Source: an uncultured Bacteroidales bacterium
Lineage (GTDB): Bacteria; Bacteroidota; Bacteroidia; Bacteroidales; UBA932
NCBI GenBank assembly: GCA_900318565.1
Contig: ONLD01000006.1
Location: forward strand, 20,950-84,949
Reading direction: 5' to 3'
Length of the DNA stretch: 64,000 bases
Shown: one piece after another, positions 1-64,000 of the stretch
Layout of the letters: each line of letters opens with the position of its first letter
Position numbering within the stretch: the stretch's first letter is position 1
Made by a program: the position numbers and the translations under genes
Notes under the pieces: model-generated
The model's database searches: none
What the model saw: the letters and a program-made list of their open reading frames with translations, nothing else
Told to the model about the DNA's origin: nothing

Positions 1-494
1 ACGCCGAAGAAGAGGCTCTGATAAGGATACAGATGAGAATAGGCGAGAATCTGCATCTCGACCAGTTGCGGGCTACAGAGACCATCGAAGAGCCCGAAAT
101 GGCGCAACAAATATTCTCCTCGGTAGCGGAATCCTGGGAGGAGGACGACCTGTTCAAGCGATTCCAGTGCCTGCTGCTGGACGAAAAAATATTTCTCCAG
201 CCGAGACTTTCTCTGGTGGATGTCGCCGACAGGCTCAACTCCAACACGAGTTATGTCTCCAAGATGATAAACAACGCGTACAATCTCTCGTTCCCGGAGC
301 TCATCAACACCCTGCGCATAGACTACGCCGAGCAATACATTCTGAGCAACAGGGACGCAAAGCAGACGGAAATAGCCGAGAAATGCGGATTTCTCAGCGC
401 TTCTTCATTCAATACAATTTTCAAGCGTGTCACTGGCGTCACTCCTAAAATATGGATGGCTTCCGCAGACCGCCAGGCAAAGCTGAAGAAATGA
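1..494 (+). CDS. AraC-family DNA-binding protein, C-terminal part (5' end outside window)
   Basis: The frame is open from base 3 with no stop before the first ATG at 33, so the gene most likely begins upstream of the window and only its C-terminal ~160 residues are seen. The last ~85 residues form an AraC/XylS double helix-turn-helix: a first helix pair around DVADRLNSNTSYVSKMI and a second ending in the typical FKRVTGVTPKIW signature. It should bind DNA as a transcription regulator. What lies N-terminal (ligand-binding, TPR or sensor region) is not visible. Its stop overlaps the start of the receiver-domain gene in an ATGA junction, so the two are probably co-translated and may act in one signalling route. 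Confidence 0.8.
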   Translation, partial: AEEEALIRIQMRIGENLHLDQLRATETIEEPEMAQQIFSSVAESWEEDDLFKRFQCLLLDEKIFLQPRLSLVDVADRLNSNTSYVSKMINNAYNLSFPELINTLRIDYAEQYILSNRDAKQTEIAEKCGFLSASSFNTIFKRVTGVTPKIWMASADRQAKLKK

Positions 495-871
495 CAGACT
501 ACTCCAAAATCAGTATTCTGGCCGTTGACGACGTCGCGCTTAACCTGCTGCTTGTAAAAAAAATCCTGCAGCGCTACAATTTCCGCATCCGCACCGCCGA
601 CAGCGGCGTCAAAGCCCTCGAAGAAGTGGCCGCGGAAAAGCCGGACCTGATTCTTCTCGACATTCTTATGCCCGGAATCGACGGCTTCGAAGTACTCAGC
701 AGACTCAAGGCTGACTGGAACACGAAAGACATCCCCGTCATCATACTTTCAGCCCTCAACTCCAACAAGGACATAGTCCGCGCCTACGAAATGGGCGCCA
801 AGGACTATATCACCAAGCCGATCATAATGGAGAAGCTGATAAACAGCGTGGCCCGCAACCTCGGACTCTAA
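491..871 (+). CDS. Stand-alone CheY-like response regulator receiver
   Basis: A 126-residue protein made of one receiver domain and no output domain. The acidic pair D13-D14, phosphoacceptor D57 in LLDILMPG, switch residue S87 and conserved K109 before proline are all in place, so it should be phosphorylated by a histidine kinase. I chose the ATG at 491, not the in-frame one at 452, because it starts directly before the receiver fold and overlaps the upstream stop (ATGA). No kinase is visible in the window, so the partner is unknown. The stop overlaps the 3' end of the convergent U32 gene by 4 bp. Confidence 0.88.
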   Translation: MTDYSKISILAVDDVALNLLLVKKILQRYNFRIRTADSGVKALEEVAAEKPDLILLDILMPGIDGFEVLSRLKADWNTKDIPVIILSALNSNKDIVRAYEMGAKDYITKPIIMEKLINSVARNLGL

Positions 872-2604
872 TCCTCCCTTCCCACAGTCATCTCGCACGA
901 GCGGCAGTCAAAGCCGAGCGGCAGTCTGCGGCCGTTGTTGACCAAGTACAGGCGCCCCGAGGGAGCCGCACCCTGATACCGCTGACACATTCCCAGTTCG
1001 AATTTCACGCAGTAGCGCGTGCGCATAAGCTCTTCGCGGGGCAGAGCCGGCCGCTCTGAAACTGCGGCAGGTACGCTGCGCTCCACCCTCCAGGGCTCAG
1101 GACGGCAGGAATCGATATCCTGAGCAAGAAGACGGCGCATAGAATTGATAGTGGACGCGCTTAGAAGCGGCATCGAAGAGCCGCAGCTGACGGAACGGAC
1201 AACAAAATGGTACACGCCGCTGCGTTTGGAAAGCTGCTCGCGCAGCATAGCCTCGCTGCGCTCAAGATTCTGCGCTTTCTCCACGTCGGCATTGAAACAG
1301 CTCTCGACCCGGCGGCCGTCCTCCGTGGCGGCGATAAGCTTGATGACGAAAGAGCCGCTGATTTCCACATCCACCGCCACATCCACTTCCCTCTTCGGCG
1401 ACCTTGCCTCCAGCTCACGCTCGAATGCGGCGTTGATATTGCGGTAAAGCCGCACGCCGGGGCGCAGGCCTTCTACCTTTTTACAAATAATGGAAAGGCC
1501 CTCGCAACGGTCGGCCCTGAAGCCGCGTATGGCGCTGCCGCTGACGAAAGCGAACCCGTCTCCGTTGGAGAGCGCAAGGCCGCGCACGGAAGGACGCAGC
1601 TGCACCTGGACGGCGCCGCCGGGCAGCGGGCGTACGCCCTGCACCTCGCCGACCAGCTCGCCCATCGCTTTCGGGGCGTCCATCGAGGACCACTTGTCCC
1701 GCTTCCCGTCCAGCCACCACTGCGTGTAGCCGCGATTGAAAGTCTTGTCGGAATCGGGCGTGAAGCCGCCGCGCACGGTGCCGAAAGAGGCCCTGCGGTA
1801 GCGCTCCGGATACTTTTGCACGAGAGCGTCCAGCGCAAGGCTGTACTCCCGCACCACATTTTTCACATAGGACGCATTTTTCAGGCGTCCCTCGATTTTG
1901 AACGAGCTCACGCCGGCCTCCGCCAACTCCTCTAGACGGTCCAGAAGCTTGAAATCGCGCATCGACAGCAGCGCCTTGTCCCGCACCAGCACCTTTCCGC
2001 TTTCGTCCACCAGGTCGTATAGAGAACGGCAGGCCTGGATACAGTCGCCGCGGTCGGCACTGCGGCCGTCCAGGTACTCGGACAGCCGGCAATCGCCGCT
2101 GTAACACACGCAAAGCGCTCCGTGCACAAAGAATTCCACCTCGCACCGCACTCCGGCGCAGATTTTCCGCACATCTTCGAGGCTGAGTCCCCTTTCGAGA
2201 ATCACCCTCTCGCATCCAAGGCTCTCAAAGTGCCTGGCCCGCTCAACATCACGGATGGCGCACTGAGTGGAGGCGTGCATAGGCATCTGGACGTCCCCGA
2301 ACCGCAGAAGGCCCTCCTCGCGGAAGATGATGGCGTCAACCCCGGCATCCTGAGCTTCCAGCATCAGGGAGTGCGCCTCCTCCCACTCGTCGTCGCGGAC
2401 AATAGTATTGACAGTCAAAAAGATACGCGCGCCGAAAAGGTGCGCGTAGTCACACAGTTCCCGGATGTCTTCAAGGCTGTTGCAGGCGGCCTTGCGGTTT
2501 CCGAGCACCGGGCCGGCGATGTAAACGGCATCGGCACCGCAGTCTATCGCCGCGATGCCGACCGTTTTATCTTTCGCAGGAGCGAGGAGCTCGAGCGTAC
2601 GCAT
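868..2604 (-). CDS. Peptidase U32 family protein (RlhA/TrhP-like)
   Basis: A 578-residue protein that starts with the family hallmark LELLAPA and contains the U32 signature region HGALCVCYSGDC with its clustered cysteines. Despite the peptidase name, characterised relatives (RlhA, TrhP) are needed for prephenate-dependent hydroxylation of 23S rRNA or of tRNA wobble uridine and carry an Fe-S cluster on conserved Cys. Role in RNA hydroxylation is inferred from family; which RNA cannot be decided here. The long C-terminal extension after ~residue 320 is usual for larger members. The start ATG overlaps the stop of the TPR gene upstream by one base (TAATG), suggesting translational coupling. Confidence 0.85.
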   Translation of the reverse strand: MRTLELLAPAKDKTVGIAAIDCGADAVYIAGPVLGNRKAACNSLEDIRELCDYAHLFGARIFLTVNTIVRDDEWEEAHSLMLEAQDAGVDAIIFREEGLLRFGDVQMPMHASTQCAIRDVERARHFESLGCERVILERGLSLEDVRKICAGVRCEVEFFVHGALCVCYSGDCRLSEYLDGRSADRGDCIQACRSLYDLVDESGKVLVRDKALLSMRDFKLLDRLEELAEAGVSSFKIEGRLKNASYVKNVVREYSLALDALVQKYPERYRRASFGTVRGGFTPDSDKTFNRGYTQWWLDGKRDKWSSMDAPKAMGELVGEVQGVRPLPGGAVQVQLRPSVRGLALSNGDGFAFVSGSAIRGFRADRCEGLSIICKKVEGLRPGVRLYRNINAAFERELEARSPKREVDVAVDVEISGSFVIKLIAATEDGRRVESCFNADVEKAQNLERSEAMLREQLSKRSGVYHFVVRSVSCGSSMPLLSASTINSMRRLLAQDIDSCRPEPWRVERSVPAAVSERPALPREELMRTRYCVKFELGMCQRYQGAAPSGRLYLVNNGRRLPLGFDCRSCEMTVGRED

Positions 2605-10324: not shown

Positions 10325-11710
10325 GTGAAGCATATTCTTACAGACCGCGCCCTCAACCGGGAAATCCTACGCCTGTCGGTGCCCAGCATCCTGGCCAACC
10401 TCACCGTGCCCCTCGTGGGGATGGTGGACACGGCGCTGGCCGGGCACCTGCAAGATGACGGCGGCGGCTCTGCCGTCTTCATCGGCGGCATCAGCGTGGG
10501 CGCTATGCTCCTCAACCTGCTCTACTGGAACTTCTTCTTCCTGCGCACCGGCACCGGCGGCCTCACCGCCCAGGCATACGGCAGGGAGAGCCCTAAGGAG
10601 TGCGCCGAAATCTTCATCCGCGGCATCGCGCTCGCGGCCGCGCTGTCGGCCTTCGTGCTCATCTTCCAGCGCCCACTCTCGAAGCTCGGGATGCTGCTTG
10701 TCTCGTCCACCCCGAAGGTCAGCGAACTGGCCCTGCGCTACTTCTGCGTGCGAATCTGGGCCGTCCCCGCGACCGTGGGACTGATGGTCTTCAGGGGCTG
10801 GTTCGTCGGTATGCAGGACTCGATGAGCTCAATGTGGACCGACCTAATCGTCAACGTGACCAACATAGCCGCCTCGGTGCTGCTGACCTTCGGGGTCGCC
10901 GGCTGGGAGGGGCTGGGCTTCGACGGCATCGCGGCCGGCACGCTCGTGGCACAATACACCGGACTGCTATGGGCCATACTCGTGTGCACGATAAAATACC
11001 GCAGCACTTTTGAAAGCGTCACCAGGGACGACGCGCGCGAGCTCCTGAAGCCCGGAAGCCTGCTGCCGTTCCTGAAGATGAACGGTCACCTGCTCGGACG
11101 CTCTCTGTGCTTCACCGCCATCTATATGGGCTACACCATCATAGCCTCCGGCTTCGGCGACGTGCTGCTGGCGTGCTCCTCGATAATGATGCAGCTGCTG
11201 ATGATATTCTCCTACTTCACCGACGGCTTCGCATACGCCGGCGAGGCGCTTGCGGGACGCTTCATCGGGGCGCGCGACCCCTTGATGCTGAAGCGCACGG
11301 TGCGCTACGTATTCATCTGGAGTATGAGCATCGCGGTGCTGTTCATAGGCATCTACGCGCTCACCGGAAGGCCGATGATACAGCTGTTCACGAGCGACGG
11401 GAATGTAGTGGAGGCGGGGACGCGGTTCCTGCCGTGGCTGATGATAATGCCGCCGCTGGGATGCGCCGCATTCACCTGGGACGGCATCTACCTCGGCGCG
11501 ACGGCGGCCTCGAGCCTCTTCCAGTCGATGGCCCTCGCGATGCTGGGATTCTTCGGAGTGTGGTTTGCCTGGAGCTGGGCCGGCGGAGCGTCGCAGACGG
11601 GCGATATCTGCCTCCACGTGCTGCTGGCTGCATATTTCGCGCACCTTGTCGCCCGCACAATATGGCTCTCGCTCCGCTACAGGCGCGCTATCCTTTCTTG
11701 TGTGTCATAA
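10325..11710 (+). CDS. MATE family efflux transporter
   Basis: A 461-residue integral inner-membrane protein with about 12 hydrophobic segments. The MATE opening is clear (SVPSILANLTVPLVGMVDTA and the AYGRE segment after the second helix). MATE pumps export cationic drugs or metabolites using Na+ or H+ gradients; the substrate here is unknown. Start is GTG at 10325, next to the promoter element. The 3' end overlaps the convergent desulfidase gene by 23 bp. Confidence 0.92.
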   Translation: MKHILTDRALNREILRLSVPSILANLTVPLVGMVDTALAGHLQDDGGGSAVFIGGISVGAMLLNLLYWNFFFLRTGTGGLTAQAYGRESPKECAEIFIRGIALAAALSAFVLIFQRPLSKLGMLLVSSTPKVSELALRYFCVRIWAVPATVGLMVFRGWFVGMQDSMSSMWTDLIVNVTNIAASVLLTFGVAGWEGLGFDGIAAGTLVAQYTGLLWAILVCTIKYRSTFESVTRDDARELLKPGSLLPFLKMNGHLLGRSLCFTAIYMGYTIIASGFGDVLLACSSIMMQLLMIFSYFTDGFAYAGEALAGRFIGARDPLMLKRTVRYVFIWSMSIAVLFIGIYALTGRPMIQLFTSDGNVVEAGTRFLPWLMIMPPLGCAAFTWDGIYLGATAASSLFQSMALAMLGFFGVWFAWSWAGGASQTGDICLHVLLAAYFAHLVARTIWLSLRYRRAILSCVS

Positions 11711-12968
11711 TATCGAGGACCATCTTGTCCGTCTGCTGCATACCCACGGAGCCGAGGCGCGTGAGGTTGTGGATGCAGCGGTCCACGTCGTCTTCGATAA
11801 GGCCCTCGACGCTGCTCACGGAGTGGTTCTGCACGGCAAGCATAGCGCTCAGCACTGCCGTTGACACGCCGCTGCTGACTTTCAGCGCGCAGCTTGGCTT
11901 GGCCCCGTCGCACACCATTCCCGTCAAGTTGGCAATCATATTCTTCACGCTCGCGGTCACCTGCTCGTAACCGCCGCCCATCAGGTAGGTCAGGGCGCAG
12001 CTGCTGCCGGTCGAGGCCACCACGCAGCCGCACAGGGCGCTCAGGCGTCCGAGGCTCTGCTTGATGTAGATGGCAGTCAGGTGGCTGAGCACGAGGGCGC
12101 GCGTCAGCTCTTCTTCGGTGTTGTGGTTCTCGCGGGCGAACACCACCACCGGGAGCGTGGCTGCAATGCCCTGGTTGCCGCTGCCCGAATTGCTCATCAC
12201 AGGGATCATCGCCCCGGCCATACGGGCGTCGCAGGCGCTGGAGGTGGCGCTGATGATGTGGCTGAAGATCGTGTCTCCGAAAATACCGCGCCCAAGGGGC
12301 CTGGAGAGGGTTTTTCCGAGCTCGTGGCCATAGTTGCCGCGGAGGGCCTGCTCGGCTGCGGCCTCATTGAGACGGCGCGATTCGTTGATGAATTCTATTT
12401 CTTCAAGGGGCACGGTGGTGGCGAAATCCCAGACACGGCGCAGCGTAAGCTCCTCGCCTGCAGCCCGTTCGGAGACCGGCCCGAGCTCCTGCAGCCTGTC
12501 GACGGGCTCGGCGGCGGGGCCCTCCAGGAACACGAGGCGGGTGTGCTCGCGGGCGATAATCGCCCTGGACGAGGCGTCGCCGCAACGGGCGCGCACGTCG
12601 ATATACAGCACTTCGTCGCTCTCATCCGTCAGCCCTATGCTCAAGGAGCCCCTCTTCAGCCAGTCCTTGGCCTGCTGCACGGCTGCCGGAGTGCAGTCTT
12701 TCAAGACTTCCAGCTGATAGGAACTCTTGCCTATCAAGGCTCCGAGCGCCACGGCGATGGGCAGTCCGGTCATCCCCGTGCCGGGAATTCCCACGCCCAT
12801 AGCGTTCTTCAGCATATTGGCACTGAGTTTCAGGTCTATCTTGTCGGGGCTGCCGCCAAGAGCCTCCACGGCATAGGCCGTACAGAGGGCCACCGCAGCG
12901 GGTTCGGTGCAGCCGATGGCCGGCACCACTTCCCTCTTTATCAGGTTAATAATCTGGGCATCGTTCAT
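11688..12968 (-). CDS. L-cysteine desulfidase / UPF0597 family (CyuA-like)
   Basis: A 426-residue protein of the serine dehydratase alpha-like UPF0597 family. The N-terminal GCTEPAAVAL motif, the SGSGNQGIAATLP motif and conserved Cys in the C-terminal half fit an enzyme with a 4Fe-4S cluster. Characterised members (CyuA/YhaM) degrade L-cysteine to pyruvate, H2S and ammonia. Substrate is assigned by family. It is transcribed alone from a promoter whose -7 element ends 5 nt before the ATG, and it overlaps the MATE gene tail to tail. Confidence 0.85.
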   Translation of the reverse strand: MNDAQIINLIKREVVPAIGCTEPAAVALCTAYAVEALGGSPDKIDLKLSANMLKNAMGVGIPGTGMTGLPIAVALGALIGKSSYQLEVLKDCTPAAVQQAKDWLKRGSLSIGLTDESDEVLYIDVRARCGDASSRAIIAREHTRLVFLEGPAAEPVDRLQELGPVSERAAGEELTLRRVWDFATTVPLEEIEFINESRRLNEAAAEQALRGNYGHELGKTLSRPLGRGIFGDTIFSHIISATSSACDARMAGAMIPVMSNSGSGNQGIAATLPVVVFARENHNTEEELTRALVLSHLTAIYIKQSLGRLSALCGCVVASTGSSCALTYLMGGGYEQVTASVKNMIANLTGMVCDGAKPSCALKVSSGVSTAVLSAMLAVQNHSVSSVEGLIEDDVDRCIHNLTRLGSVGMQQTDKMVLDIMTHKKG

Positions 12969-12973
12969 ATTGT

Positions 12974-12981
12974 CAAAGATA
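12974..12981 (-). promoter_or_regulatory. -7 promoter element (TATCTTTG) 5 nt before the desulfidase gene
   Basis: On the minus strand the octamer is followed by ACAAT and then the ATG at 12968, which implies a leaderless or near-leaderless transcript. Confidence 0.65.
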
Positions 12982-13044
12982 GCGCTTTTTGCCGAAAAAA
13001 GCAGACAAACGAAGGGGATTTCACATATTTTATAAGAAAATATC

Positions 13045-13052
13045 TATATTTG
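13045..13052 (+). promoter_or_regulatory. -7 promoter element (TATATTTG) of the spt operon
   Basis: Consensus octamer 24 nt before the spt start codon. It probably drives spt through at least the short-chain reductase gene. Confidence 0.7.
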
Positions 13053-13076
13053 TGGGTTAAAGTATTATTACCTAAA

Positions 13077-14267
13077 ATGGACAGACTACTAAACAAAGCT
13101 TGCGCGAAATACACTTTGGCAGACGAAGTCAAAGCTAAGGGAGTATATCCTTACTACCGCCCGATTTCCTCCGGCCAGGACCCTCTGGTGACTATGGCCG
13201 ACGGCTCCAAAGTGCTGATGTTCGGCTCGAATTCCTACCTCGGACTTTCGGACGACCCGCGCCTCAAAGAAGCTGCTATCGCCGCAATTAAAAAGTATGG
13301 TACCAGCTGCTCCGGCAGCCGTTTCCTCAACGGTACCCTCGATATCCACGAAGAACTCGAAGAAAAGCTCGCCCGCTTTGTGGGCAAGGAAGAAGCCGTG
13401 ACCTACAGTACCGGATTCCAGGTCAACCTCGGAGTCGTGGGCTGCCTGGGATTCAGGGGAGGATTCATCTTCCTGGACGCCCTGGACCACGCCTGCATCA
13501 TCGACGGCAGCCGCCTGAGTTTCAGCGAAGTACGCAAGTTCCGCCACAACGATATGGCAGACCTCGAGAAGAAGCTCTGGCTGACCCCCCGCCACGCCAA
13601 CAAGCTCATAGTCGTGGACGGCGTGTACTCGATGGAAGGCGACATCGCCCCCGTGCCCGAGTTGGTGGCGCTCTGCGAAAAATACAATGCATCCCTGATG
13701 ATTGACGACGCCCACGGCCTCGGCGTAATCGGCGAAAACGGCTCCGGCACCGCCAGCCACTTCGGCCTGACCGACAGCGTGGACCTTATAATGGGCACGT
13801 TCTCAAAGAGTTTCGGCTCCCTTGGCGGCTTCATAGCAGGCGACCGCGTCGTCATCGAATACCTGAAGCACAACTCCCGTTCGCTGATTTTCAGCGCCTC
13901 GATGACGCCCGCCGCCGTGGCTGCGGCAAGCAAAGCCCTGGACATTATGATCGAGGAGCCGGAGCGCCGCGAGCACCTCTGGGAAGTCACCCGCCACGCC
14001 CAGGAAGCATTCAAGGCTAACGGCTTCGACATCGGGCACACCCAGTCCCCTATCATCCCGCTCTTCGTGCGCGACACCATCAAGGCTATGACCATAGTCA
14101 AGCTTGCCTACGAGCAGGGCGTGTTCATCACTCCCGTCATCGCCCCTGCGGTGCCCGAGAAGGACGTGCTCATCCGCTTCGCGCTTATGGCCACGCACAG
14201 CATCGAACAGGTCGATGAGGCCGTGGAGAAACTGACCAAAATCTTCAAACAGCTCGAAATCATATGA
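13077..14267 (+). CDS. spt: Serine palmitoyltransferase (alpha-oxoamine synthase family)
   Basis: A 396-residue PLP enzyme of fold type I. The PLP lysine is K244 in GTFSKSFGS and the cofactor-stacking region DDAHGLGVIG is intact. The N-terminus (KAKGVYPYYRPI, KVLMFGSNSYLGL) and C-terminus resemble Bacteroides serine palmitoyltransferase more than Kbl, BioF or HemA. It condenses serine with a fatty acyl-CoA to 3-ketosphinganine, the first step of sphingolipid synthesis. The frame is open far upstream (to 12081) but the ATG at 13077 is the natural start after the promoter. It overlaps the next gene, a reductase, by 4 bp. Kbl remains a minor alternative. Confidence 0.85.
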   Translation: MDRLLNKACAKYTLADEVKAKGVYPYYRPISSGQDPLVTMADGSKVLMFGSNSYLGLSDDPRLKEAAIAAIKKYGTSCSGSRFLNGTLDIHEELEEKLARFVGKEEAVTYSTGFQVNLGVVGCLGFRGGFIFLDALDHACIIDGSRLSFSEVRKFRHNDMADLEKKLWLTPRHANKLIVVDGVYSMEGDIAPVPELVALCEKYNASLMIDDAHGLGVIGENGSGTASHFGLTDSVDLIMGTFSKSFGSLGGFIAGDRVVIEYLKHNSRSLIFSASMTPAAVAAASKALDIMIEEPERREHLWEVTRHAQEAFKANGFDIGHTQSPIIPLFVRDTIKAMTIVKLAYEQGVFITPVIAPAVPEKDVLIRFALMATHSIEQVDEAVEKLTKIFKQLEII

Positions 14268-15058
14268 TTATCCTGATCACCGGCATCACTTCCGGCTTCG
14301 GAAAAGCAATGGCCGAAAGGCTCTGCGCCGACGGCCACACCGTTTACGGCACACACCGCCACGCTACCGACTTACTGCCCGGCGTCCATTACATCAAGGC
14401 CGACGCCCAGAATGAAGAAGAATGCCGGGATGCGGTACAGCAGGTGCTTGACGCAGAGGGCCGCATCGACGTGTTCATCAACAACGCCGGGATGGGCATA
14501 GGCGGGCCGCTGGAATTCTCTTCCCTTGAAGATGCCGAGCGCCAGATGGACGTCAACTGGATGGGTATGGTGCGCTTCCTGCACTATGTACTGCCCGCGA
14601 TGCGCAGGCAGGGCGGCGGCCGCATCATCTGCTTCTCCTCCATCGGAGGCCTGATGGGACTGCCTTTCCAGGGCCTGTACTCAGCCAGCAAATTCGCCAT
14701 CGAGGGCTATTGCGAGGCCCTGCGTATGGAGGTACGCGCCCATAATATCCAGGTCGTGGTCATCGAGCCCGGCGACTTCGCGACAGCCTTCACGGCCCAG
14801 CGCAAGAGCGTCTCCGACCCTGAAGCATACGAAGTATATAAGACTTACGCCAAATCCCTGGCGAGCATAGAGCACGACGAGACCACCGGCCTCAAGCCCG
14901 AGTACCTGGCAAATAAGATCAGCAAGATAGTGACGGCCCGCAAACCCCGCTACAATTACATAATTTCCACGCTCGAGCAGCGCCTGTCGGTGCTGTTGAA
15001 GGCCATCCTGCCCCCGAGCTGGTTTGCAGCCATTCTGAGAAGCTACTACAAACTATAG
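14264..15058 (+). CDS. Short-chain dehydrogenase/reductase, candidate 3-ketosphinganine reductase
   Basis: A 264-residue classical SDR. The nucleotide-binding motif ITGITSGFG lies at the N-terminus, NNAG is present, and catalytic Y139 and K143 sit in YSASK. The C-terminal tail is basic and partly hydrophobic (LKAILPPSWFAAILRSYYKL), as in membrane-associated SDRs acting on lipids. Overlap with spt (ATGA) suggests that it reduces the spt product 3-ketosphinganine to sphinganine; this is inferred from context. The downstream GTG start overlaps its TAG stop, so the glucanotransferase is probably in the same transcript. Confidence 0.78.
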   Translation: MIILITGITSGFGKAMAERLCADGHTVYGTHRHATDLLPGVHYIKADAQNEEECRDAVQQVLDAEGRIDVFINNAGMGIGGPLEFSSLEDAERQMDVNWMGMVRFLHYVLPAMRRQGGGRIICFSSIGGLMGLPFQGLYSASKFAIEGYCEALRMEVRAHNIQVVVIEPGDFATAFTAQRKSVSDPEAYEVYKTYAKSLASIEHDETTGLKPEYLANKISKIVTARKPRYNYIISTLEQRLSVLLKAILPPSWFAAILRSYYKL

Positions 15059-16932
15059 TGAAGACCACATTTTCAATACACTACCTGACGCAGTGGGGCG
15101 AGAGCCTCTGCGTGGTGCTGCAGGACAAGAAGCACCCTATGGAATGGCAGGACGGCGGCCTCTGGACCGTCAGCGTCAATGCTTCCGCAGCAGCCCTGAA
15201 AGATTACTACTATGTCGTTATGCGCGACGGACTTATCGTGCGCAGCGAGTGGAGCCACCACAGCGCCGCACCCGCCCCCGAAATAGCGGACAGCTGGATT
15301 GACTGCCCGGTCGAAGGGTGTCCCTTCGTGCGCAAACACAGCGCGGAGATTTTCGACCGTCCGGGATTCCGCGGAGCCGGCACCGCAGTGCCCGTGTTCG
15401 CCCTCAGGGGCGAGGGTGATTTCGGCATCGGCGACTTTAGGGACCTGCGTCCGCTGGTGGACTGGGCCGCAGCTACAGGTCAGTGTATCATACAGTTGCT
15501 TCCCGTCGGAGACACTACCCGGCGCGGAGAGTGGAAAGACTCCTACCCCTACAGCCCCATATCCTCCTTCGCCCTGCACCCGCTCTACATCCGCCTGCAG
15601 GAGATAGGAGTGAAGGAAGACGCCGCCTTCCGCCGTGTGCAGAAGGAGCTTAACGAGCTGCCGGAGCTGGACTACCCGAGGGTGTTCAAGGAGAAAATGT
15701 CCCGTGTGCGCAAGGCCTGGGAGGCTGTAGGAGAAAAGGACTGCAAGAGCGCCGCGTTCCGCCGCTTCTGCAAGGCCAACGCCTATTGGCTGGACGAGTA
15801 CGCAGAATTCTGCGCAGGGCGCGACTCCAACGAGCCCGATTACTGGCGCTGGATTCAGTGGCACCTGGACCGCCAGTTCTCCGAAGAAGCCGCCTACGCG
15901 CGCAGCAAGGGCGTACACTTCAAGGGAGACCTGCCCATCGGAGTGAGCGCCGACAGTGCCGACGCGTACTTCCATCCCGAGCTTTTCAACCTGGATTCCT
16001 CCGCCGGCGCTCCGCCGGATTTCTTCAGCGCAGAAGGCCAGAACTGGGGCTTCCCCACTTACAACTGGGACGCTATGGCCCGGGACGGCTACGCCTGGTG
16101 GAAGTCGCGCCTGCGCAAGATGAGCGAGTATTTTGACGCATTCCGCATCGACCATATACTGGGCTTCTTCCGCATCTGGGAGATTCCCCTGGAATACAGC
16201 AGCGGCTCTATGGGCCATTTCAACCCCGCCCTTCCCTACCGCAAGGAGGAAATCGAGGCGATGGGACTTCCCTTCGAGGGGCTGTTCCTGCCCGATCCGC
16301 GCAATGAAGGCTGCTGGCAGCCTCGCATCCTGCCCGAATCGCAGAACCTGCCGCAATGGCAGCAGGAGCAGTTCGGAGCCCTCTACAACGACTTCTTCTA
16401 CCACCGCAACGACGACCTGTGGCGCCGCAACGCCGAACGCAAGCTCCCCGAGCTGCTTAATGCCACCGGTATGCTCGCCTGCGGAGAAGACCTCGGAATG
16501 GTGCCGGACTGCGTGGAGGGAGTGATGGCCCACGAGACCATACTCTCGCTCGAGATGGCGAATATGGACAAGGGCCGTCCCTGGCCCGAGCTTGCCGTGT
16601 GCGCCACTTCATCCCACGATATGGCCACGCTGCGTATGCAGTTCAGCGAAGAGAACGGCCGCGATATGGAGCCCTGGGAAGTGCGCCGCACCATCTGGGG
16701 GCATCTGGACTCGGCCCCTATGCTGGCCATCTTCCCGCTGCAGGACTGGATTGCCCTGGACGGAGGACTGCGCCGCAAGGACTTTATGAATGAGCGCATA
16801 AACCAGCCCGCCGATCCCGCACACCACTGGCGCTACCGTATGCACATCAGCCTCGAGACCCTTCGCGACGCCACGGGACTGTGCACCGCAATAACCGGAC
16901 TTATCAAAGATTCAAGAAGATACAATAGATAA
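15058..16932 (+). CDS. malQ: 4-alpha-glucanotransferase (GH77) with N-terminal starch-binding domain
   Basis: A 624-residue protein. Residues ~1-95 resemble a CBM20-type starch-binding domain; residues ~105-624 are the GH77 catalytic domain. Catalytic positions expected for GH77 are present: D365 in FRIDH (nucleophile), E477 in GEDLG (acid/base) and D521 in SSHD. It disproportionates maltodextrins and glycogen-derived glucans in the cytoplasm. It starts with GTG overlapping the preceding TAG by one base and is followed 2 nt later by glyS. Only one CBM20-like unit is seen. Confidence 0.92.
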   Translation: MKTTFSIHYLTQWGESLCVVLQDKKHPMEWQDGGLWTVSVNASAAALKDYYYVVMRDGLIVRSEWSHHSAAPAPEIADSWIDCPVEGCPFVRKHSAEIFDRPGFRGAGTAVPVFALRGEGDFGIGDFRDLRPLVDWAAATGQCIIQLLPVGDTTRRGEWKDSYPYSPISSFALHPLYIRLQEIGVKEDAAFRRVQKELNELPELDYPRVFKEKMSRVRKAWEAVGEKDCKSAAFRRFCKANAYWLDEYAEFCAGRDSNEPDYWRWIQWHLDRQFSEEAAYARSKGVHFKGDLPIGVSADSADAYFHPELFNLDSSAGAPPDFFSAEGQNWGFPTYNWDAMARDGYAWWKSRLRKMSEYFDAFRIDHILGFFRIWEIPLEYSSGSMGHFNPALPYRKEEIEAMGLPFEGLFLPDPRNEGCWQPRILPESQNLPQWQQEQFGALYNDFFYHRNDDLWRRNAERKLPELLNATGMLACGEDLGMVPDCVEGVMAHETILSLEMANMDKGRPWPELAVCATSSHDMATLRMQFSEENGRDMEPWEVRRTIWGHLDSAPMLAIFPLQDWIALDGGLRRKDFMNERINQPADPAHHWRYRMHISLETLRDATGLCTAITGLIKDSRRYNR

Positions 16933-16934
16933 TT

Positions 16935-18473
16935 ATGACACAGGAAGAACTTTTCAAAGTGCTTGTAGCACACTGCAAAGAGTATGGTTTCATTTTCCCG
17001 TCCAGCGAAATCTACGACGGGCTTGCCGCTGTCTATGACTACGGCCAGATGGGCGTGGAGCTCAAGAACAACATAAAGCAGTACTGGTGGAACGCAATGA
17101 CCCGCCTGAACGAGAATATCGTGGGCATAGACTCCTGCATATTTATGCACCCCCGCATCTGGGAGGCTTCCGGCCACGTGAGCGCGTTCAACGATCCGCT
17201 TATCGACAATAAGGATTCCAAGAAGCGCTACCGCGCCGACGTGCTCATCGAGGACTACCTCGCCAAGATCGAGGAGAAGATGAACAAGGAGGTCGAGAAG
17301 GGCCGCAAGAAGTTCGGCGAGGCCTTCAACGAAGAGCAGTTCCGTGCCACCAACCCCAACGTGCTCCGCGAGAAAGCCCGTTACGACGAGGTCCACAACC
17401 GCTACAAGAAAGCGGAAGACGCGAACGACCTGGCCGAGTACAAGCAGATTATCGTCGACTGCGGCATCGTGTGCCCCATCAGCGGCACCTGCAACTGGAC
17501 CGACGTTAGGCAGTTCAACCTGATGTTCCAGACCTCTATGGGCAGCACAGCCGAGGGCGCCAGCACCATCTACCTGCGTCCCGAGACAGCCCAGGGCATC
17601 TTCGTGAACTATCTCAACGTACAGAAGACCGGCCGTATGAAGATTCCTTTCGGCATCGCCCAGATAGGCAAAGCCTTCCGCAACGAAATCGTGGCCCGTC
17701 AGTTCATCTTCCGTATGAGGGAGTTCGAGCAGATGGAGATGCAGTTCTTCATCAAGCCCGGCACCGAACTGGAGTGGTTCAAGAAATGGAAGGAGCAGCG
17801 TATGAAATGGCACGTGAATATAGGTATGGGCGCTGAGAACTACCGCTTCCACGACCACGAGAAACTTGCCCACTACGCCAACGCCGCGACCGACATCGAG
17901 TTCCAGTTCCCCTTCGGTTTCAAGGAGCTGGAAGGCATCCACAGCCGCACCAACTGGGACCTCGGAAGGCACCAGCAGTACTCCGGCCGCAAAATCGAGT
18001 ACTTCGACCCCGAAGAAGGAGCCGCCTACACTCCTTACGTCGTGGAGACCTCCATCGGCGTGGACCGTATGGTGCTTGCAGTGCTCAGCCACTCCCTCAA
18101 GGAGGAGAAACTCGAGAACGGCGAGACGAGGGTGGTTATGAGCATCCCCGCTCCGCTGGCCCCCGTCAAGGCCGCAGTGCTGCCTCTGGTCAAGAAGGAC
18201 GGCCTGCCCGAGCTCGCCCAGAAAGTTATGGACGCCCTCAAGTACGACTTCAACTGCCAGTATGAGGAAAAAGATTCCATCGGCAAGCGCTACCGCAGGC
18301 AGGACGCTATCGGCACCCCGTTCTGCATCACTGTGGACCACCAGAGCCTCGAAGACGGTTGCGTGACCGTGCGCGAGAGGGACACTATGAGCCAGGAGCG
18401 CGTGCCCATCACTGAGCTCCGCGACCTCATTGACAAGAGGGTCAACCTCAACAACCTTCTCCGCAACTTATAA
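16935..18473 (+). CDS. glyS: Glycyl-tRNA synthetase, class II homodimeric type
   Basis: A 512-residue alpha2-type GlyRS, as in Bacteroidota, eukaryotes and archaea, not the alpha2beta2 form. Class II motif 2 (FRNEIVARQFIFRMREFEQME) and motif 3 region (ETSIGVDRMVLAVL) are intact, with a C-terminal anticodon-binding domain from ~residue 400. It charges tRNA-Gly; the window also holds tRNA-Gly(GCC). It lies 2 nt after malQ, and its stop overlaps the next start (TAATG). Confidence 0.96.
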   Translation: MTQEELFKVLVAHCKEYGFIFPSSEIYDGLAAVYDYGQMGVELKNNIKQYWWNAMTRLNENIVGIDSCIFMHPRIWEASGHVSAFNDPLIDNKDSKKRYRADVLIEDYLAKIEEKMNKEVEKGRKKFGEAFNEEQFRATNPNVLREKARYDEVHNRYKKAEDANDLAEYKQIIVDCGIVCPISGTCNWTDVRQFNLMFQTSMGSTAEGASTIYLRPETAQGIFVNYLNVQKTGRMKIPFGIAQIGKAFRNEIVARQFIFRMREFEQMEMQFFIKPGTELEWFKKWKEQRMKWHVNIGMGAENYRFHDHEKLAHYANAATDIEFQFPFGFKELEGIHSRTNWDLGRHQQYSGRKIEYFDPEEGAAYTPYVVETSIGVDRMVLAVLSHSLKEEKLENGETRVVMSIPAPLAPVKAAVLPLVKKDGLPELAQKVMDALKYDFNCQYEEKDSIGKRYRRQDAIGTPFCITVDHQSLEDGCVTVRERDTMSQERVPITELRDLIDKRVNLNNLLRNL

Positions 18474-19585
18474 TGGAACCGAACCGGCGCCTGGCGAGCC
18501 TCGATGCACTGAGGGGCTTCGATATGCTGTTCATTATGGGCTTCGCCTCGCTGGTGATGGCGGTGTGCCGCCTGTTCCCGGAAGGCGAGACCAGCTGGAT
18601 ATTCCAGCAGATGAACCACGTGGAGTGGGACGGCCTGAGGCACCACGACACGGTTTTCCCTCTGTTCATCTTCATCGCGGGCATCTCCTTTCCCTTCTCG
18701 TATGCAAAAATGCAGGAGAAGGGAAAGGGGCGCGGGAAAATCTACTGGAAGATTTTCCGCAGGGCGCTTGTCCTGATCCTCTTCGGCCTGATCTGCAACG
18801 GATTGCTCAAGTTCCAGTTCGCTGACCTGCGCTTCTGGAGCGTGCTCGCCAGAATCGGCCTCAGCTGGATGTTCGCCGCGCTGCTGTTTATCAACTTCAA
18901 GCCGTCGGTGCGCGCCGTCACGGCCGTGGCGCTGCTGGTGGGTTACTGGCTGCTGCTGCGCTTCGTGCCGGCCCCCGACGCTCCCGCAGGCGCAGGACCC
19001 TTCTCCTTCGAAGGCAACCTTGTGGGATACGTGGACCGTTGCCTCTTCCCAGGGCACCTGTACAAAGGCGCCGGCGGCGTATTCGACCCCGAGGGCCTGC
19101 TGAGCACCATCCCCGCCGTGGTCACGGCTATGCTGGGTATGTTCACCGGAGAGTGGGTGCGGAAAACGGACGTCAGCGAGAAGCGCAAGGTGCTGTGGAT
19201 GGTGGCGGCGGCGGCCGTAATGCTCGGCCTCGGACTGCTGTGGTCCCTATGGTTCCCTATCAACAAGAAGCTCTGGAGCAGCAGCTTCGTGCTGGTGGTG
19301 GGAGCATATTCGCTCGCGCTTTTCGCTTTGTTCTACTGGATTATAGATGTCAAGGGATGGAAGAAATGGGCCTTCCCGTTCATAGTCATAGGTATGAATT
19401 CCATCGTCATATTTATGGCGCCGCGGATGATAGACTTCAAGTTCACCACCGACTTTTTCCTCTCCGGCCTTTGCTCGCTGATGGGCCCTCTCTGGGCCAA
19501 AGCCGTCTGGAGACTGGGCTACCTTGTGGTCGTCTGGCTCTTCCTTTATTTTTTATATAAGAAGAAAATCTTCCTCAAAGTTTAG
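18473..19585 (+). CDS. DUF5009/NagX-like acyltransferase-fold membrane protein
   Basis: A 370-residue polytopic protein starting RRLASLDALRGFDMLFI, the hallmark N-terminus of the heparan-alpha-glucosaminide N-acetyltransferase (HGSNAT/NagX, DUF5009) family. It has about 10 membrane helices and a conserved His-bearing HVEWDGLRHHDTVFPLF segment near residue 48. Relatives transfer acetyl groups to sugars across the inner membrane, and some act in amino-sugar uptake in Bacteroidota. The substrate is not evident here. The start overlaps the glyS stop. Confidence 0.82.
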   Translation: MEPNRRLASLDALRGFDMLFIMGFASLVMAVCRLFPEGETSWIFQQMNHVEWDGLRHHDTVFPLFIFIAGISFPFSYAKMQEKGKGRGKIYWKIFRRALVLILFGLICNGLLKFQFADLRFWSVLARIGLSWMFAALLFINFKPSVRAVTAVALLVGYWLLLRFVPAPDAPAGAGPFSFEGNLVGYVDRCLFPGHLYKGAGGVFDPEGLLSTIPAVVTAMLGMFTGEWVRKTDVSEKRKVLWMVAAAAVMLGLGLLWSLWFPINKKLWSSSFVLVVGAYSLALFALFYWIIDVKGWKKWAFPFIVIGMNSIVIFMAPRMIDFKFTTDFFLSGLCSLMGPLWAKAVWRLGYLVVVWLFLYFLYKKKIFLKV

Positions 19586-19604
19586 TTAGTTCCAATAAAA
19601 ATAC

Positions 19605-19612
19605 TAACTTTG
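19605..19612 (+). promoter_or_regulatory. -7 promoter element (TAACTTTG) of secDF
   Basis: The octamer fits TAnnTTTG and lies 38 nt before the secDF ATG, giving a leader of about 30-35 nt. Confidence 0.65.
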
Positions 19613-19650
19613 CGAACTATTTTGGAAAATTATTAATATTAACCATAGTT

Positions 19651-22600
19651 ATGCAAAGTAAAGGAGCAATCAGACTTGTAGCAATCCTGCTTGCACTCGC
19701 CTGCATCTGGCAGCTCTCCTTCACCGCTGTGACCAGCATCCAGGAGAAGAAGGCCGCCAAGGCCGCCGCCGCAAAGGTGGACGCATTCAGCCAGAGCGCC
19801 GAGTTCGCAAAGGTAGCTGCAGAGGATCAAGCTTATTTCCTTGATTCACTCAAGAAAAACGAAGAAAAGAGGTTTACAGACTCGATTTCTTCCCAGAAAG
19901 TTTATTTCGGCAACACATTCAAAGAAGTAAAGGCCAAGGAGATCAACCTCGGTCTGGACCTCAAGGGCGGTATGAACGTTATGCTGCAGGTCCAGCTCGA
20001 AGACCTTGTGCGCGCCCTGTCCGGCAACAACACGACCCCCGAGTTCCAGAAGGCCATCAGCCTCGCTAAGGAGCGTATGGTGGGTTCGCAGTCCGACTTC
20101 ATCACCCTCTTCGCAGAGGCTTGGAAGGAGACTACCGGCGGCCAGAGGCTGTCCCAGGTGTTCGGTACCTACGAAATGCGCGACCGCATCAAGCCCGAGT
20201 CCACTGACGACCAGGTTGTGACCGTGATCAAGGAAGAGGCCGAGAGCGCAATTGCGAACTCCTTCAACGTGCTTCGCAACCGTATCGACCGCTTCGGCGT
20301 GACCCAGCCCTCCATCCAGAAGATCGGCAACACCGGCCGTATCCTCGTGGAGCTCCCCGGTGTCAAAGAGCCTGAGCGTGTGCGTAAGCTGCTCCAGGGC
20401 ACCGCTTCCCTGGAATTCTGGACCACGTTCGACGCCGCCGAGATCACTCCTTTCCTCCAGGAGGCCAACTCGCTGCTCGCCCAGTATGCCGAGAGCGAAC
20501 CCGCTACCGAGGCTGAGGCCGCTCCCGCCGCCGACGACCTGGTGGCCGAGGAAATCAAGGCCCAGGGTGAGTCCGACGCTGAAATGGACGCCCTCAAGAA
20601 GGCCAATCCCCTGTTCTCCGTGCTGCAGCCCAGCAACTTCCGCGGCAACGCCTGTATCGGTTTCGCAGCAGCTGCCGATACCGCAGCCGTCGGCAAGTAT
20701 CTCCGTCAGCCCGAGGTTGCAAACCTCTTCCCTGCCGAGTTCCGCCCTATGTGGAGCGTGAAGCCCTCAAGCTATCTGCAGTCCGACAATATCTATGAGC
20801 TCATCGCCATCAAGGCCTCCAGCCGTGACGGCAAGGCTCCTCTGGACGGCGGCGTGGTGACCGACGCCCGCGTGACGACCAACGACCGCCGCGGCGGCAG
20901 CCCGACCGTGTCTATGACTATGAACGCTGAAGGCGCCAATATCTGGGCCCGCCTGACCAAGGACAACATCGGCAAGCAGATCGCCATCGTGCTCGACGGC
21001 ACCGTGTATTCCTACCCTACCGTCAACAGCGAAATCACCGGCGGTTCTTCCGAAATCAGCGGCAACTTCACTATGGACGAGGCCACCGACCTTACCAACG
21101 TGCTGAAGTCCGGTAAGCTCCCCGCCCCCGCCACCATCGTGCAGGAGCAGGTCGTGGGTCCTTCCCTGGGTGCCGAGTCCATCAGGGCCGGTCTCATCTC
21201 CTTCATCATCGCGTTCGTGCTCGTGCTCCTCTATATGTTCATCTTCTACAAGGGAGCCGGCCTCGTGGCTGACGCAGCTCTGCTGACCAACGTCATCCTG
21301 CTCTTCGGCGCACTCGCATCCTTCGGAGCGGTTTTGACCCTGCCCGGTATCGCCGGTCTCGTGTTGACATTGGGTATGGCAGTGGACGCCAACGTTATTA
21401 TATATGAGCGTATCAAGGAAGAAATCAAGGCTGGCAAGGGCCTCGGAAAGGCCGTCCACGACGGTTATGCCAACGCCTACTCCGCCATTATCGACGGTCA
21501 GGTGACCACCCTCCTCACCGGTCTGGTACTGTTCTTCTTCGGTTCCGGTCCTATCAAGGGCTTCGCCACCACGCTCATCGTCGGTATCATCACCTCCGTG
21601 CTGACCAGCATCTTCATCACCCGCCTCATCATCGACGACCGCGTGAACAAGGGCAAGAACGTCAGCTTCGAGTGGGATTGGTCCAAGAACTTCCTCAAGA
21701 ATACCAACGTCGATTTCATCGGCGCCCGCAAGTACTCCTACATCATCTCCGGCGCCATGATTCTCATCGCCATCGGTTCCATCGCATTCAAGGGCTTCAC
21801 CTACGGTGTGGACTTCACCGGAGGCCGTACCTACGTGGTGCGCTTCGACCAGCCCGTGACCGCCGAGGCAGTGCGCTCCGCAGTTAACAACACCTTCAAC
21901 GCAGCGGATCCCGAATCCAGCGTTGAAGTGAAGCAGTTCGGCAGCGACGCCCAGATGAAGATTACGACTTCCTACAAGGTCAAGGACGAATCCTCCGCAG
22001 TTGACACCGAAATCGAAGGTATGCTCTTCCAGGCCCTCAAGGGATTCTACAAGGAAGACCTGACCCAGGCCGACTTCGTGTCCACCCTGGACAACCCCAA
22101 CGGTATCATCTCCTCCGACAAGGTGGGCGCATCGATTGCAAGCGACATCAAGCGTTCCGCAATCATCAGCGTGCTGCTCGCCCTGCTCATCATCTTCGCC
22201 TACATCGCCTGGCGTTTCAAGGGCTGGAGCTGGGGTCTCGGCGGCGTGGTCTCACTTGCCCACACCGCTATCATCCTCATCGGCTTCTTCTCGCTGTTCA
22301 GCGGAATCCTGCCCTTCAACCTGGATGTGGACCAGACATTTATCGCAGCTATCCTGACTATCATCGGTTACGCCATCAACGATAACGTGGTTATCTTCGA
22401 CCGTATCCGTGAGAATCTCGGCCTGCACCCCAACGACGACTTCAAGGAAATGGTGAACAAGTCCCTCAACCAGACCCTCACCCGTACGGTCAACACCTCC
22501 GTATCGACCCTCCTTCCTATGCTTGCCATCGCATTCTTCGGCGGTGAGAGCATCAGGGGTCTGTCCGTCGCGCTCTGCCTCGGTATCCTCATCGGTACCT

Positions 22601-22674: not shown

Positions 22675-22691
22675 GTCACCGACTTACTACC

Positions 22692-22727
22692 AAAAAGCCC
22701 TGCCGCTCATCACGGCAGGGCTTTTTT
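22692..22727. terminator. Bidirectional rho-independent terminator between secDF and the DUF4923 gene
   Basis: A perfect 14-bp stem (22692-22705 with 22713-22726) with a 7-nt loop. Flanking A and T runs make it work in both directions between the two convergent genes. Confidence 0.92.
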
Positions 22728-22744
22728 ATTATCTGAAAGGCCGC

Positions 22745-23353: not shown

Positions 23354-23368
23354 TTTTTTATAAATTGA

Positions 23369-24370: not shown

Positions 24371-24374
24371 TATG

Positions 24375-24382
24375 CAAATATA
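24375..24382 (-). promoter_or_regulatory. -7 promoter element (TATATTTG) 4 nt before the ThiL-like gene
   Basis: On the minus strand the octamer is followed by CATA and then the ATG at 24370. It is divergent from the equally close dnaE promoter. Confidence 0.65.
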
Positions 24383-24427
24383 ATATTTTTTTTGACTCCT
24401 GCGCTTGACAATCCGGCCCGCGTTGGC

Positions 24428-24435
24428 TATATTTG
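24428..24435 (+). promoter_or_regulatory. -7 promoter element (TATATTTG) 4 nt before dnaE
   Basis: A consensus octamer with a TTG about 20 nt upstream as -33 box. CACT separates it from the ATG at 24440, so dnaE mRNA is probably leaderless. Confidence 0.7.
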
Positions 24436-24439
24436 CACT

Positions 24440-28318: not shown

Positions 28319-28332
28319 AGCAGTTCCCGGGG

Positions 28333-37969: not shown

Positions 37970-38043
37970 CAACAAAAATTGGAATTGAAATTAATAATTT
38001 CTATCTTTACGACTTGAATGGACAATAAATAAAGTAAAACGAT

Positions 38044-38733: not shown

Positions 38734-38752
38734 GACATTACAGACCAAAACG

Positions 38753-38782
38753 AAAGGTTGTCCCCAAAGGATGGCCTTTTTT
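38753..38782 (+). terminator. Rho-independent terminator after the TonB-like gene
   Basis: An 11-bp stem (38753-38763 with 38769-38779, three G-U pairs) with a 5-nt loop runs into six T. It ends only 18 bp before the hflX start codon. Confidence 0.82.
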
Positions 38783-38800
38783 AGATTGAAAACAGCCTAA

Positions 38801-63666: not shown

Positions 63667-63750
63667 TTGTCCTTGAAAACGGCGGTTTTTAAGGACAACC
63701 ACCTCTTGAAACTGTACCTTGTCCTTGAAAATGGCTGTTTTCAAGGACAA
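63667..63750. repeat. Two near-identical 32-nt hairpins in tandem
   Basis: 63667-63698 and 63719-63750 each form a 14-bp stem with a 4-nt GGCG or GGCT loop. Both stems begin TTGTCCTTGAAAA, and only a few bases differ. The pair looks like a REP/BIME-type intergenic repeat and may also end the thyA-folA transcript, although no U-run follows. Confidence 0.75.
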
Positions 63751-63762
63751 AGTACTAAAGAA

Positions 63763-64000
63763 TCAGTTGATTTCCTCGATTTCAAAAGGATCCGGATGTA
63801 TTATATACCATTTCTTCAGACCCTTTTGTCTAATATCGGAAAGCGTCCAGGGAGACATTATGAGTTGAATATCTTCGCATTTCTTAGACACTATGTGGTC
63901 ACCCGGAGAAGAACAAAACAGATAGTTCGGGTATTGAGGGCTATAATAGAAGTCCGGGTATCTGCCCCCTTCGATTCTTCTACATACAATCAAGTTATCG
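63763..64000 (-). CDS. Unidentified ORF, truncated by the right window edge
   Basis: At least 79 C-terminal residues, open to the window edge, so the start lies outside. The sequence is rich in Tyr, Ile and Pro (GGRYPDFYYSPQYPNYLF, then WTLSDIRQKGLKKWYII) and clearly more AT-rich than the neighbouring folate genes. I do not recognise a family. It could be part of an accessory module beginning beyond the window. Confidence 0.5.
   Translation of the reverse strand, partial: DNLIVCRRIEGGRYPDFYYSPQYPNYLFCSSPGDHIVSKKCEDIQLIMSPWTLSDIRQKGLKKWYIIHPDPFEIEEIN

What the first reader, a model, noticed from the sequence alone, without database searches (positions are those of the whole stretch)
1..64000. 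Near-total absence of the palindrome CATG
Reading the + strand (CATG is its own complement), I find only two CATG sites, at 21756-21759 (secDF) and 44197-44200 (the AT-rich FGE-like gene). A random 64-kb sequence would have about 250. Hundreds of ATG triplets occur, but they are preceded by A, G or T. Codons before Met end in T (GCT-ATG, GGT-ATG, CCT-ATG), although C-ending codons are otherwise preferred. Other tetramers such as GATC, CTAG and GTAC are present. Two explanations fit: avoidance of an NlaIII-type CATG restriction system, or cytosine methylation in CATG followed by deamination, which would turn CATG into TATG and could explain the many TATG. No R-M gene is in the window.
Basis: partly seen in the sequence, partly recalled or inferred. 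Interest (0 to 1): 0.85.

Follow-up and report, generated by a model that had tools for sequence, protein, structure and literature searches.

The report
Genome that erased its CATG sites
This uncultured bacterium has removed nearly every copy of the four-letter DNA word CATG from its own genome, apparently by selection against the target of a CATG-cutting restriction enzyme; a few sister species carry such an enzyme, but it was not found in this genome assembly.

Summary
It is genome-wide: 142 against 3559 expected in the 1.08 Mb read of 2.31 Mb, most survivors in a few clusters. All codon phases and intergenic spacers (0 against 84 expected) are affected, and sites vanish mostly by synonymous changes, so this looks like DNA-level selection, not cytosine deamination. 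It is recurrent: four close relatives have normal CATG, a SecDF tree forces at least five changes, and 34 of 300 genomes of the genus, this one included, are depleted. Three of these 34, and none of the other 266 as far as searched, carry a cassette M2-REase-M1; in two the REase is of the IceA/NlaIII family, reported to cut CATG. This genome (96% complete) shows no IceA and no M1, and no methyltransferase family is shared by the eight depleted genomes tested. Best reading: avoidance driven by a long-resident CATG restriction-modification system, probably of this kind, unassembled or lost within about 0.3% divergence. An unrecognised CATG system remains open.

The parts
1..64000 (.). CATG-depleted chromosomal segment (window = G000:C60:20950-84949); 2 CATG observed, 189 expected
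21756..21759 (.). one of the two remaining CATG sites, inside secDF
44197..44200 (.). second remaining CATG site, inside the FGE-sulfatase-domain gene
19651..22674 (+). secDF (SecD/SecF domains), used as marker gene for the tree and to anchor orthologous loci; 59 of 61 genomes searched have a match
43212..44249 (-). FGE-sulfatase-domain gene that holds one remaining CATG
10325..39973 (.). span of the window within which parts align to four CATG-normal close relatives (4.2-18.8 kb aligned each): none of their CATG sites is kept here (pairwise 0/55, 0/18, 0/48, 0/66)

Best explanation
The genome has been purged of CATG by selection at the DNA level because the species carries, or carried until very recently, a long-resident orthodox type II restriction-modification system that recognises CATG; each unmethylated CATG in its own DNA risks being cut, so changes that destroy the site, mostly synonymous ones, are favoured until almost none is left. 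The likeliest kind is the cassette seen in sister species: a methyltransferase M2 (N6_N4 type), an endonuclease of the IceA/NlaIII family, sometimes an EVE-like/PD-(D/E)xK nuclease, and a D12 adenine methyltransferase M1. Shown: genome-wide, all-context depletion; recurrence within the genus; CATG surviving in clusters; the cassette only in depleted members of the genus; no IceA or M1 in this assembly. Inferred: the cassette's CATG specificity (from its family and from depletion around its homologues), the selective mechanism, that the clusters are recent arrivals, and that the system is unassembled, strain-variable or recently lost here.
For: CATG 142 observed against 3559 expected in 1,076,268 readable bases of the own genome. 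In the set of 56 readable loci, 44 hold 20 against 2537 expected, while the other 12 hold 109, including islands with a DpnII-type and an EcoRII-type R-M system. Intergenic 0 against 84 expected (divergent 0/29.6, convergent 0/15.1, tandem 0/39.6), coding 14/2460 (the 12 clustered loci left out). Against four congeners of 17-21% DNA divergence in the aligned parts, 0 of 55, 18, 48 and 66 CATG sites kept, while 41-51% of control palindromes are kept. Depletion is scattered on a SecDF tree, at least 5 changes forced, one clade rejected p_AU 1.6e-84; 34 of 300 genomes of the genus depleted by whole-genome counts, G000 included. Cassette M2-R-M1 in 3 of 34 depleted and, as far as searched, 0 of 266 other genomes, Fisher p 0.0013, group named after seeing the D12 table. 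REase PF05315 (ICEA) at 380-389 bits, in 2 of 300 genomes, both depleted. Literature: iceA1 is described as NlaIII-like next to the methylase gene hpyIM, and a cited title calls iceA1 a CATG-recognising endonuclease gene (PMC13340068, passages). Flanks of 31 homologous loci with a nuclease: CATG O/E median 0.10, 22 of 31 under 0.2, against 3 of 37 with M1 only, p 1e-7.
Against: The own genome (96.5% complete) has no PF05315 hit; its only D12 and only N6_N4 methyltransferase hits belong to a DpnII-type island. Of the 34 depleted genomes 31 lack the cassette's M1, among them 9 of the 10 that are at least 90% complete, and several without it are more depleted (G153 0.035, G323 0.045, G000 0.051) than the three with it (0.13, 0.30, 0.32). 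No methyltransferase family of five searched is shared by the eight depleted genomes tested. Own loci at lptG, nhaA and dnk, where sister species hold the cassette or a lone M1, are without it. In the flank test GATC is low too (median 0.26 against 0.65), and CATG is the lowest palindrome other than CTAG in 11 of 31 nuclease-bearing but also 15 of 42 other loci, so that test alone does not prove CATG specificity. One paper's passages print CTAG, not CATG, as the nlaIIIR target while citing the CATG title (PMC3261200).
Confidence: 0.6

Rival explanations
1. An unrecognised CATG-targeting DNA system, not of the five methyltransferase families searched and not IceA/NlaIII, is common in this genus and erased CATG here and in most depleted species; the IceA cassette explains only a few.
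For: 31 of 34 depleted genomes show no M1, among them 9 of 10 with at least 90% completeness; the strongest depletion occurs without it. No methyltransferase family is shared by the eight depleted genomes tested. A motif scan of the own DNA read finds, besides two unlikely hits, only the two methyltransferases of the DpnII-type island and one RsmD-like protein (named by eye).
Against: More than half of the own genome was not read base by base; metagenome bins often miss islands and plasmids (recalled). 142 CATG survive in 1.08 Mb, so any nuclease must be held off by some modification (inference).
Confidence: 0.25
2. Orphan cytosine methylation in CATG followed by deamination turned CATG into TATG/CATA (mutation pressure, not selection).
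For: TATG 1.35 and CATA 1.34 O/E in 296 kb of other own contigs; 22 TATG and 4 CATA of 30 sites that are CATG in every covering relative; C-to-T share of changes 0.77 against 0.56 (p 0.01).
Against: CAT|G sites became CACG (7 of 16) or CGTG (5 of 16), none TATG (sites CATG in any of four relatives); phases 0 and 1 are down to 2.2% and 3.2% of expectation; G018 replaces C mainly by G; the only own C5 methyltransferase, beside an EcoRII-type REase, lies in an island that still has 9 CATG in about 4.5 kb.
Confidence: 0.04
3. Avoidance acts on RNA or codons (a CAUG-cutting toxin, or disfavoured NNC-AUG codon pairs).
For: Most CATG in CATG-normal relatives are NNC|ATG (183 of 249 coding sites in four relatives).
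Against: All three codon phases and intergenic DNA are depleted, including divergent intergenic spacers 0 against 29.6.
Confidence: 0.02
4. Old trace: the CATG system was lost long ago and the depletion merely persists.
For: Avoidance without the matching R-M in the genome is known; sites of R-M systems found in other species of the genus are under-represented in 18.4% of 5162 cases (PMC4687349, section 19 read).
Against: Regain of only 0.8% of equilibrium allows about 0.0027-0.0030 divergence since loss, calibrated on turnover of control palindromes, so loss would be at strain level, not old.
Confidence: 0.07

Closest known systems
Recognition-site avoidance by orthodox type II R-M systems (Rusinov et al. 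2015, PMC4687349; abstract, passages, sections 15 and 19)
   Same: A short palindrome is depleted in the host genome; traces can outlive the system in relatives.
   Different: Far below that paper's threshold for under-representation (ratio 0.78): 0.8% in the 44 low loci here; recurs at least five times in one genus; the matching genes were not found in the assembly.
NlaIII / IceA1-HpyIM CATG restriction-modification
   Same: Endonuclease of Pfam PF05315 in one cassette with a D12 adenine methyltransferase in depleted sister species; CATG is the avoided word.
   Different: The cassette has a second methyltransferase M2 first, and in 15 of 31 nuclease-bearing homologous loci an EVE-like/PD-(D/E)xK nuclease (with IceA in 10); IceA and M1 were not found in the window's genome.
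UpaP162 CATG R-M of Ureaplasma parvum (PMC6191088, passages)
   Same: Type II, recognises CATG.
   Different: Methyltransferase annotated as cytosine-5 type, endonuclease without homologues in their search; its homologues were not searched for here.
DpnII-type GATC R-M (present in this genome, contig C32)
   Same: Type II system (REase PF04556 at 352 bits, Dam-family D12 and N6_N4 methyltransferases) in a genome with low GATC (0.33).
   Different: Would explain GATC, not CATG; lies on a contig that still has 20 CATG against 57 expected.

Membership tests
Type II R-M site avoidance | one palindrome depleted far below a Markov model while control palindromes are normal | tested here: met
   CATG 0.011; GTAC 0.93, TGCA 0.94; CTAG 0.14 and GATC 0.33 are also low
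Type II R-M site avoidance | depletion in coding and non-coding DNA, all phases (DNA level) | tested here: met
Type II R-M site avoidance | cognate R-M genes present in the genome | tested here: not met
   assembly 96.5% complete, families outside those searched not excluded
NlaIII/IceA R-M (own genome) | PF05315 endonuclease | tested here: not met
   0 of 61; 2 of 300, not G000
NlaIII/IceA R-M (own genome) | D12 methyltransferase of the M1 type | tested here: not met
   only D12 hit is the Dam-family one of the DpnII-type island
NlaIII/IceA R-M (cassette of G130, G193) | PF05315 endonuclease with HNH-like conserved residues (HNH label recalled) | tested here: met
   380-389 bits against cut-off 24; D115-H116, N145, C152/C155 and C187/C190 invariant in 11 of 11 aligned
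NlaIII/IceA R-M (cassette of G130, G193) | D12 adenine methyltransferase in the same cassette | tested here: met
   M1 of G130 is cut by the contig end
NlaIII/IceA R-M (cassette of G130, G193) | cuts and methylates CATG | tested here: inconclusive
   hosts and flanks CATG-depleted, but GATC is low too and one search shows no rank difference; no biochemistry
m5C deamination of CATG | loss by C-to-T only, regardless of codon phase | tested here: not met

The most novel reading that the evidence does not exclude
About one in nine species of this Bacteroidales genus has erased much or nearly all of its CATG, several times independently, under a DNA-targeting system that belongs to none of the five methyltransferase families searched and is not IceA/NlaIII: an unrecognised kind of sequence-specific genome policing, with the IceA cassette only a local substitute.
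Probability: 0.22. Interest if true: 0.8.

Novelty: new variant of a known kind. Interest (0 to 1): 0.52.

Why it matters
Restriction-site avoidance is usually mild (recalled, and the 0.78 threshold of PMC4687349); here selection leaves under 1% of sites over most of the genome read, and related depletions recur within one genus with close sister species as untouched controls. That makes the strength, speed and reversibility of self-restriction measurable from genomes and offers a sensitive sign of restriction systems that assemblies miss. It also brings to light a candidate four-gene CATG cassette with two methyltransferases and two unrelated nucleases.

Tried and rejected
Own-genome R-M systems as the cause: the DpnII-type cassette (C32) has a PF04556 DpnII REase (GATC by recall) and sits on a contig with 20 CATG of 57 expected; the C5 methyltransferase / EcoRII-type REase / Vsr cassette (C66) sits in a CATG-bearing island. 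Three AT-rich, nearly CATG-free islands of the own genome hold an AbiEi-type gene (PF09952) and mostly secreted or surface-like genes by eye, no recognised R-M. CRISPR arrays to link phages: only 51-52-bp tandem repeats in the loci held at that point. IceA-type endonuclease: the A1 scan of viral contigs found no relative, although one contig brought in by the M1 scan has one (L373); none in phages, one distant hit (32%) in plasmids. M1 in plasmids: 54 records, all under 60% identity. Papers: seven searches listed no report of this depletion that I could see; seen as passages: PMC12898733, PMC6191088, PMC13340068, PMC3261200; PMC4687349 as abstract, passages and sections 15 and 19; the rest as listings only.
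Full report
Observation. CATG occurs twice in the 64-kb window, at 21756 and 44197, against 189 expected from a second-order Markov model and 242 from composition; it has the lowest ratio of all 256 tetramers (0.011), followed by CTAG 0.143 and GATC 0.330 (P).

Extent in the own genome. The window is G000:C60:20950-84949 of a 2.31-Mb, 104-contig, 96.5%-complete assembly. I read 1,076,268 readable bases of it (46.6%; five short contigs that read as N were dropped): 142 CATG against 3559 expected. In the set of 56 readable loci (983 kb, 129 against 3235), 44 loci hold 20 against 2537, and the remaining 109 are in 12 loci, several at contig ends or in islands such as a DpnII-type R-M island (L010) and a C5-methyltransferase/EcoRII-type/Vsr island (L252). 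With those 12 loci left out, coding DNA has 14 against 2460 and intergenic spacers 0 against 84 (divergent 0/29.6, convergent 0/15.1, tandem 0/39.6; genes called by a simple ORF rule). Calling the clustered DNA recently acquired is an inference from this pattern.

Recurrent within the genus. In loci of 3.8-20 kb, most around secDF, of 36 same-genus genomes plus the window, eight have CATG O/E of 0.01-0.18 (G000, G001, G018, G020, G022, G030, G031, G035) and 29 have 0.65-1.15; of four other families of the order, one (G044) is at 0.20 and three at 0.62-0.84. The four nearest by SecDF (G023, G027, G011, G004; 89-90% amino-acid identity) are normal. A SecDF tree of 37 rows (35 of the genus, 7 of them depleted, plus 2 outgroups) needs 7 changes, at least 5 forced by starred branches, shows no clustering of the label (500 of 500 shuffles as low) and rejects one depleted clade (p_AU 1.6e-84; quick tree, one long branch, G035, two rows with 12% of columns). 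Whole-genome counts of GCCATG against its reversed control in 300 genomes of the genus, G000 included, give a long low tail without a sharp gap: 34 under a ratio of 0.45, 48 under 0.7; G000 is third lowest at 0.051 (53 against 1032). The control differs in composition, so the ratio is a rough gauge.

How sites were lost. Where four close relatives have CATG in the aligned parts, G000 keeps 0 of 55, 18, 48 and 66 sites at 17-21% divergence, while it keeps 41-51% of twelve control palindromes. At 30 sites that are CATG in every covering relative (two or more), G000 has TATG 22, CATA 4, and one each of CACG, CCTG, GATG, AATG. Of 112 sites that are CATG in any of the four, those with C in codon position 3 go mostly to NNT|ATG; CAT|G sites go to CACG (7 of 16) or CGTG (5 of 16). 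All codon phases are depleted: 0.6%, 2.2% and 3.2% of the expectation from relatives (phases 2, 0, 1). All 78 four-fold and 44 two-fold NNC|ATG sites (pairs pooled over four relatives, so sites recur) changed, against 59 of 201 and 26 of 151 before ATC/ATT; T makes up 77% of the four-fold changes against 56% in the control (p 0.01). I read this as selection against the DNA word with a mild transition bias, not deamination. Regaining 0.8% of the equilibrium number would take only about 0.003 divergence, so the pressure is present or ended within strain-level time. That calibration is mine and rough.

Looking for the system. In the 61-genome set no family is shared by the eight depleted genomes: D12 methyltransferases only in G000 and G031, C5 in G000 and G018, N6_N4 in G000, G031, G035 and weakly G020, N6_Mtase in G022 and G035; Eco57I hits exist in six of the eight, clear only in G030 and G022, and equally in normal genomes. 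G000 itself shows a DpnII-type cassette (Dam-family D12, PF04556 REase, N6_N4 methyltransferase) and a C5/EcoRII-type/Vsr cassette. ICEA (PF05315) was absent in 61 of 61, with no control ringing in that call; later showed that the model works.

The cassette in sister species. D12 over 300 genomes (63 with a hit, 7 of them among the 34 depleted) revealed in G193, G161 and G130 a distinct D12 enzyme (M1, its conserved part begins MNYIGSK) with a second methyltransferase (M2) nearby; a lone M1 stands in G127 (ratio 0.86). In the 53 D12-search loci then held, only these score above 680 bits with an M1 profile, the next 154 and 133 (G130's was read; weaker hits without a locus were not read). Reading the loci gives M2 (262-264 aa), an endonuclease, then M1. 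In G130 and G193 the endonuclease matches PF05315 ICEA at 380-389 bits; over 300 genomes ICEA occurs only in these two. M2 and the second nuclease were not searched over the 300. H. pylori iceA1 is described as NlaIII-like beside hpyIM, and cited titles call them CATG-recognising and CATG-specific (PMC13340068, passages; the cited papers were not read; PMC3261200 prints CTAG for nlaIIIR). All three cassette genomes are depleted; none was found in the 266 others (p 0.0013; group defined after seeing the D12 table). In G161 the nuclease between M2 and M1 is another protein; in G193 a 94-aa piece of that protein remains beside the ICEA gene.

Homologues elsewhere. 80 named GTDB loci with M1 relatives (best 80 of 285 confirmed) were fetched. 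Where all are seen, gene order is M2, ICEA, sometimes the second nuclease, M1 (L358 differs; some loci are cut by contig ends). After leaving out the two records that are G161 and G193 themselves and five loci with too little flank, 31 loci with a nuclease have flank CATG O/E median 0.10 (22 of 31 under 0.2), 5 with M1+M2 only 0.15, and 37 with M1 only 0.56 (3 of 37 under 0.2). Against: GATC is low as well (median 0.26 against 0.65), three nuclease-bearing loci have CATG at 0.5 or more, and CATG is the lowest palindrome other than CTAG in 11 of 31 and 15 of 42, no difference. Four nuclease-bearing loci have CATG under 0.2 with GATC at 0.5 or more (L302, L331, L339, L353).

The second nuclease. 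A 14-sequence alignment shows an invariant D277...E295-x-K297 set; Pfam EVE and RE_Alw26IDE match only below cut-off. An AlphaFold model (pLDDT 82.7) matches PH1033, THYN1 and other EVE-type structures and the EndoMS/NucS nuclease in the PDB (best E 1.6e-7 for PH1033; EndoMS 1.2e-3; VcaM4I 1.5e-3) (the EVE label is partly recalled). It is thus a likely EVE-like plus PD-(D/E)xK nuclease; its target is unknown.

Verdict. The finding is real, stronger and wider than stated. The best reading is self-restriction pressure from a CATG type II system, most likely IceA/NlaIII-like, absent from the assembly; that nine of the ten depleted genomes of 90% completeness or more (G000 included) also lack it is the main open problem, and keeps an unrecognised CATG system possible.

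Noticed in passing
L010 (G000:C32) about 6173-8843; L001: Own DpnII-type cassette (Dam-family D12 methyltransferase, PF04556 REase, N6_N4 methyltransferase) on a contig with 20 CATG of 57 expected; GATC is 0.33 in the window.
   Followed up: partly
L126 / L252 (G000:C66): C5 methyltransferase next to an EcoRII-type REase (PF09019, PF09217) and, divergently, a Vsr endonuclease, in a CATG-bearing island; GTCGAC is low in this genome (0.22), cause unknown.
   Followed up: partly
L277:2887-4155 and homologues (14 aligned in A3): EVE-like plus PD-(D/E)xK (EndoMS/NucS-like) nuclease built into CATG-type R-M cassettes, with or instead of the IceA endonuclease; a 94-aa remnant in L276.
   Followed up: yes
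L373 (IMG/VR contig IMGVR_UViG_2823233258_000005): A viral-collection contig encodes M2- and IceA-like proteins and the start of M1.
   Followed up: no
L067 (G044:C224): In another family of the order with CATG 0.20 and GATC 0.27, a D12 methyltransferase lies beside a REase fragment (PADLOC REase_II) and DHFR- and nucleoside-kinase-like genes (by eye).
   Followed up: no
L271 (G323:C2): The second most CATG-depleted genome of the 300 has a D12 methyltransferase with a PD-(D/E)XK nuclease (PF20796) in DNA that holds 6 CATG of 15 expected, so possibly a recent arrival.
   Followed up: partly
L233:11728-13684: AT-rich, CATG-free island with an AbiEi-type antitoxin gene (PF09952) and a nucleotidyltransferase-like gene (by eye, no Pfam match).
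   Followed up: partly
L270 (G127:C159): A lone M1 methyltransferase without a nuclease in the 3.9 kb held, between a deoxynucleoside kinase (PF01712) and an acyl-CoA-ligase-like gene (by eye); that junction has no insert in G000 (about 40 bp gap).
   Followed up: partly
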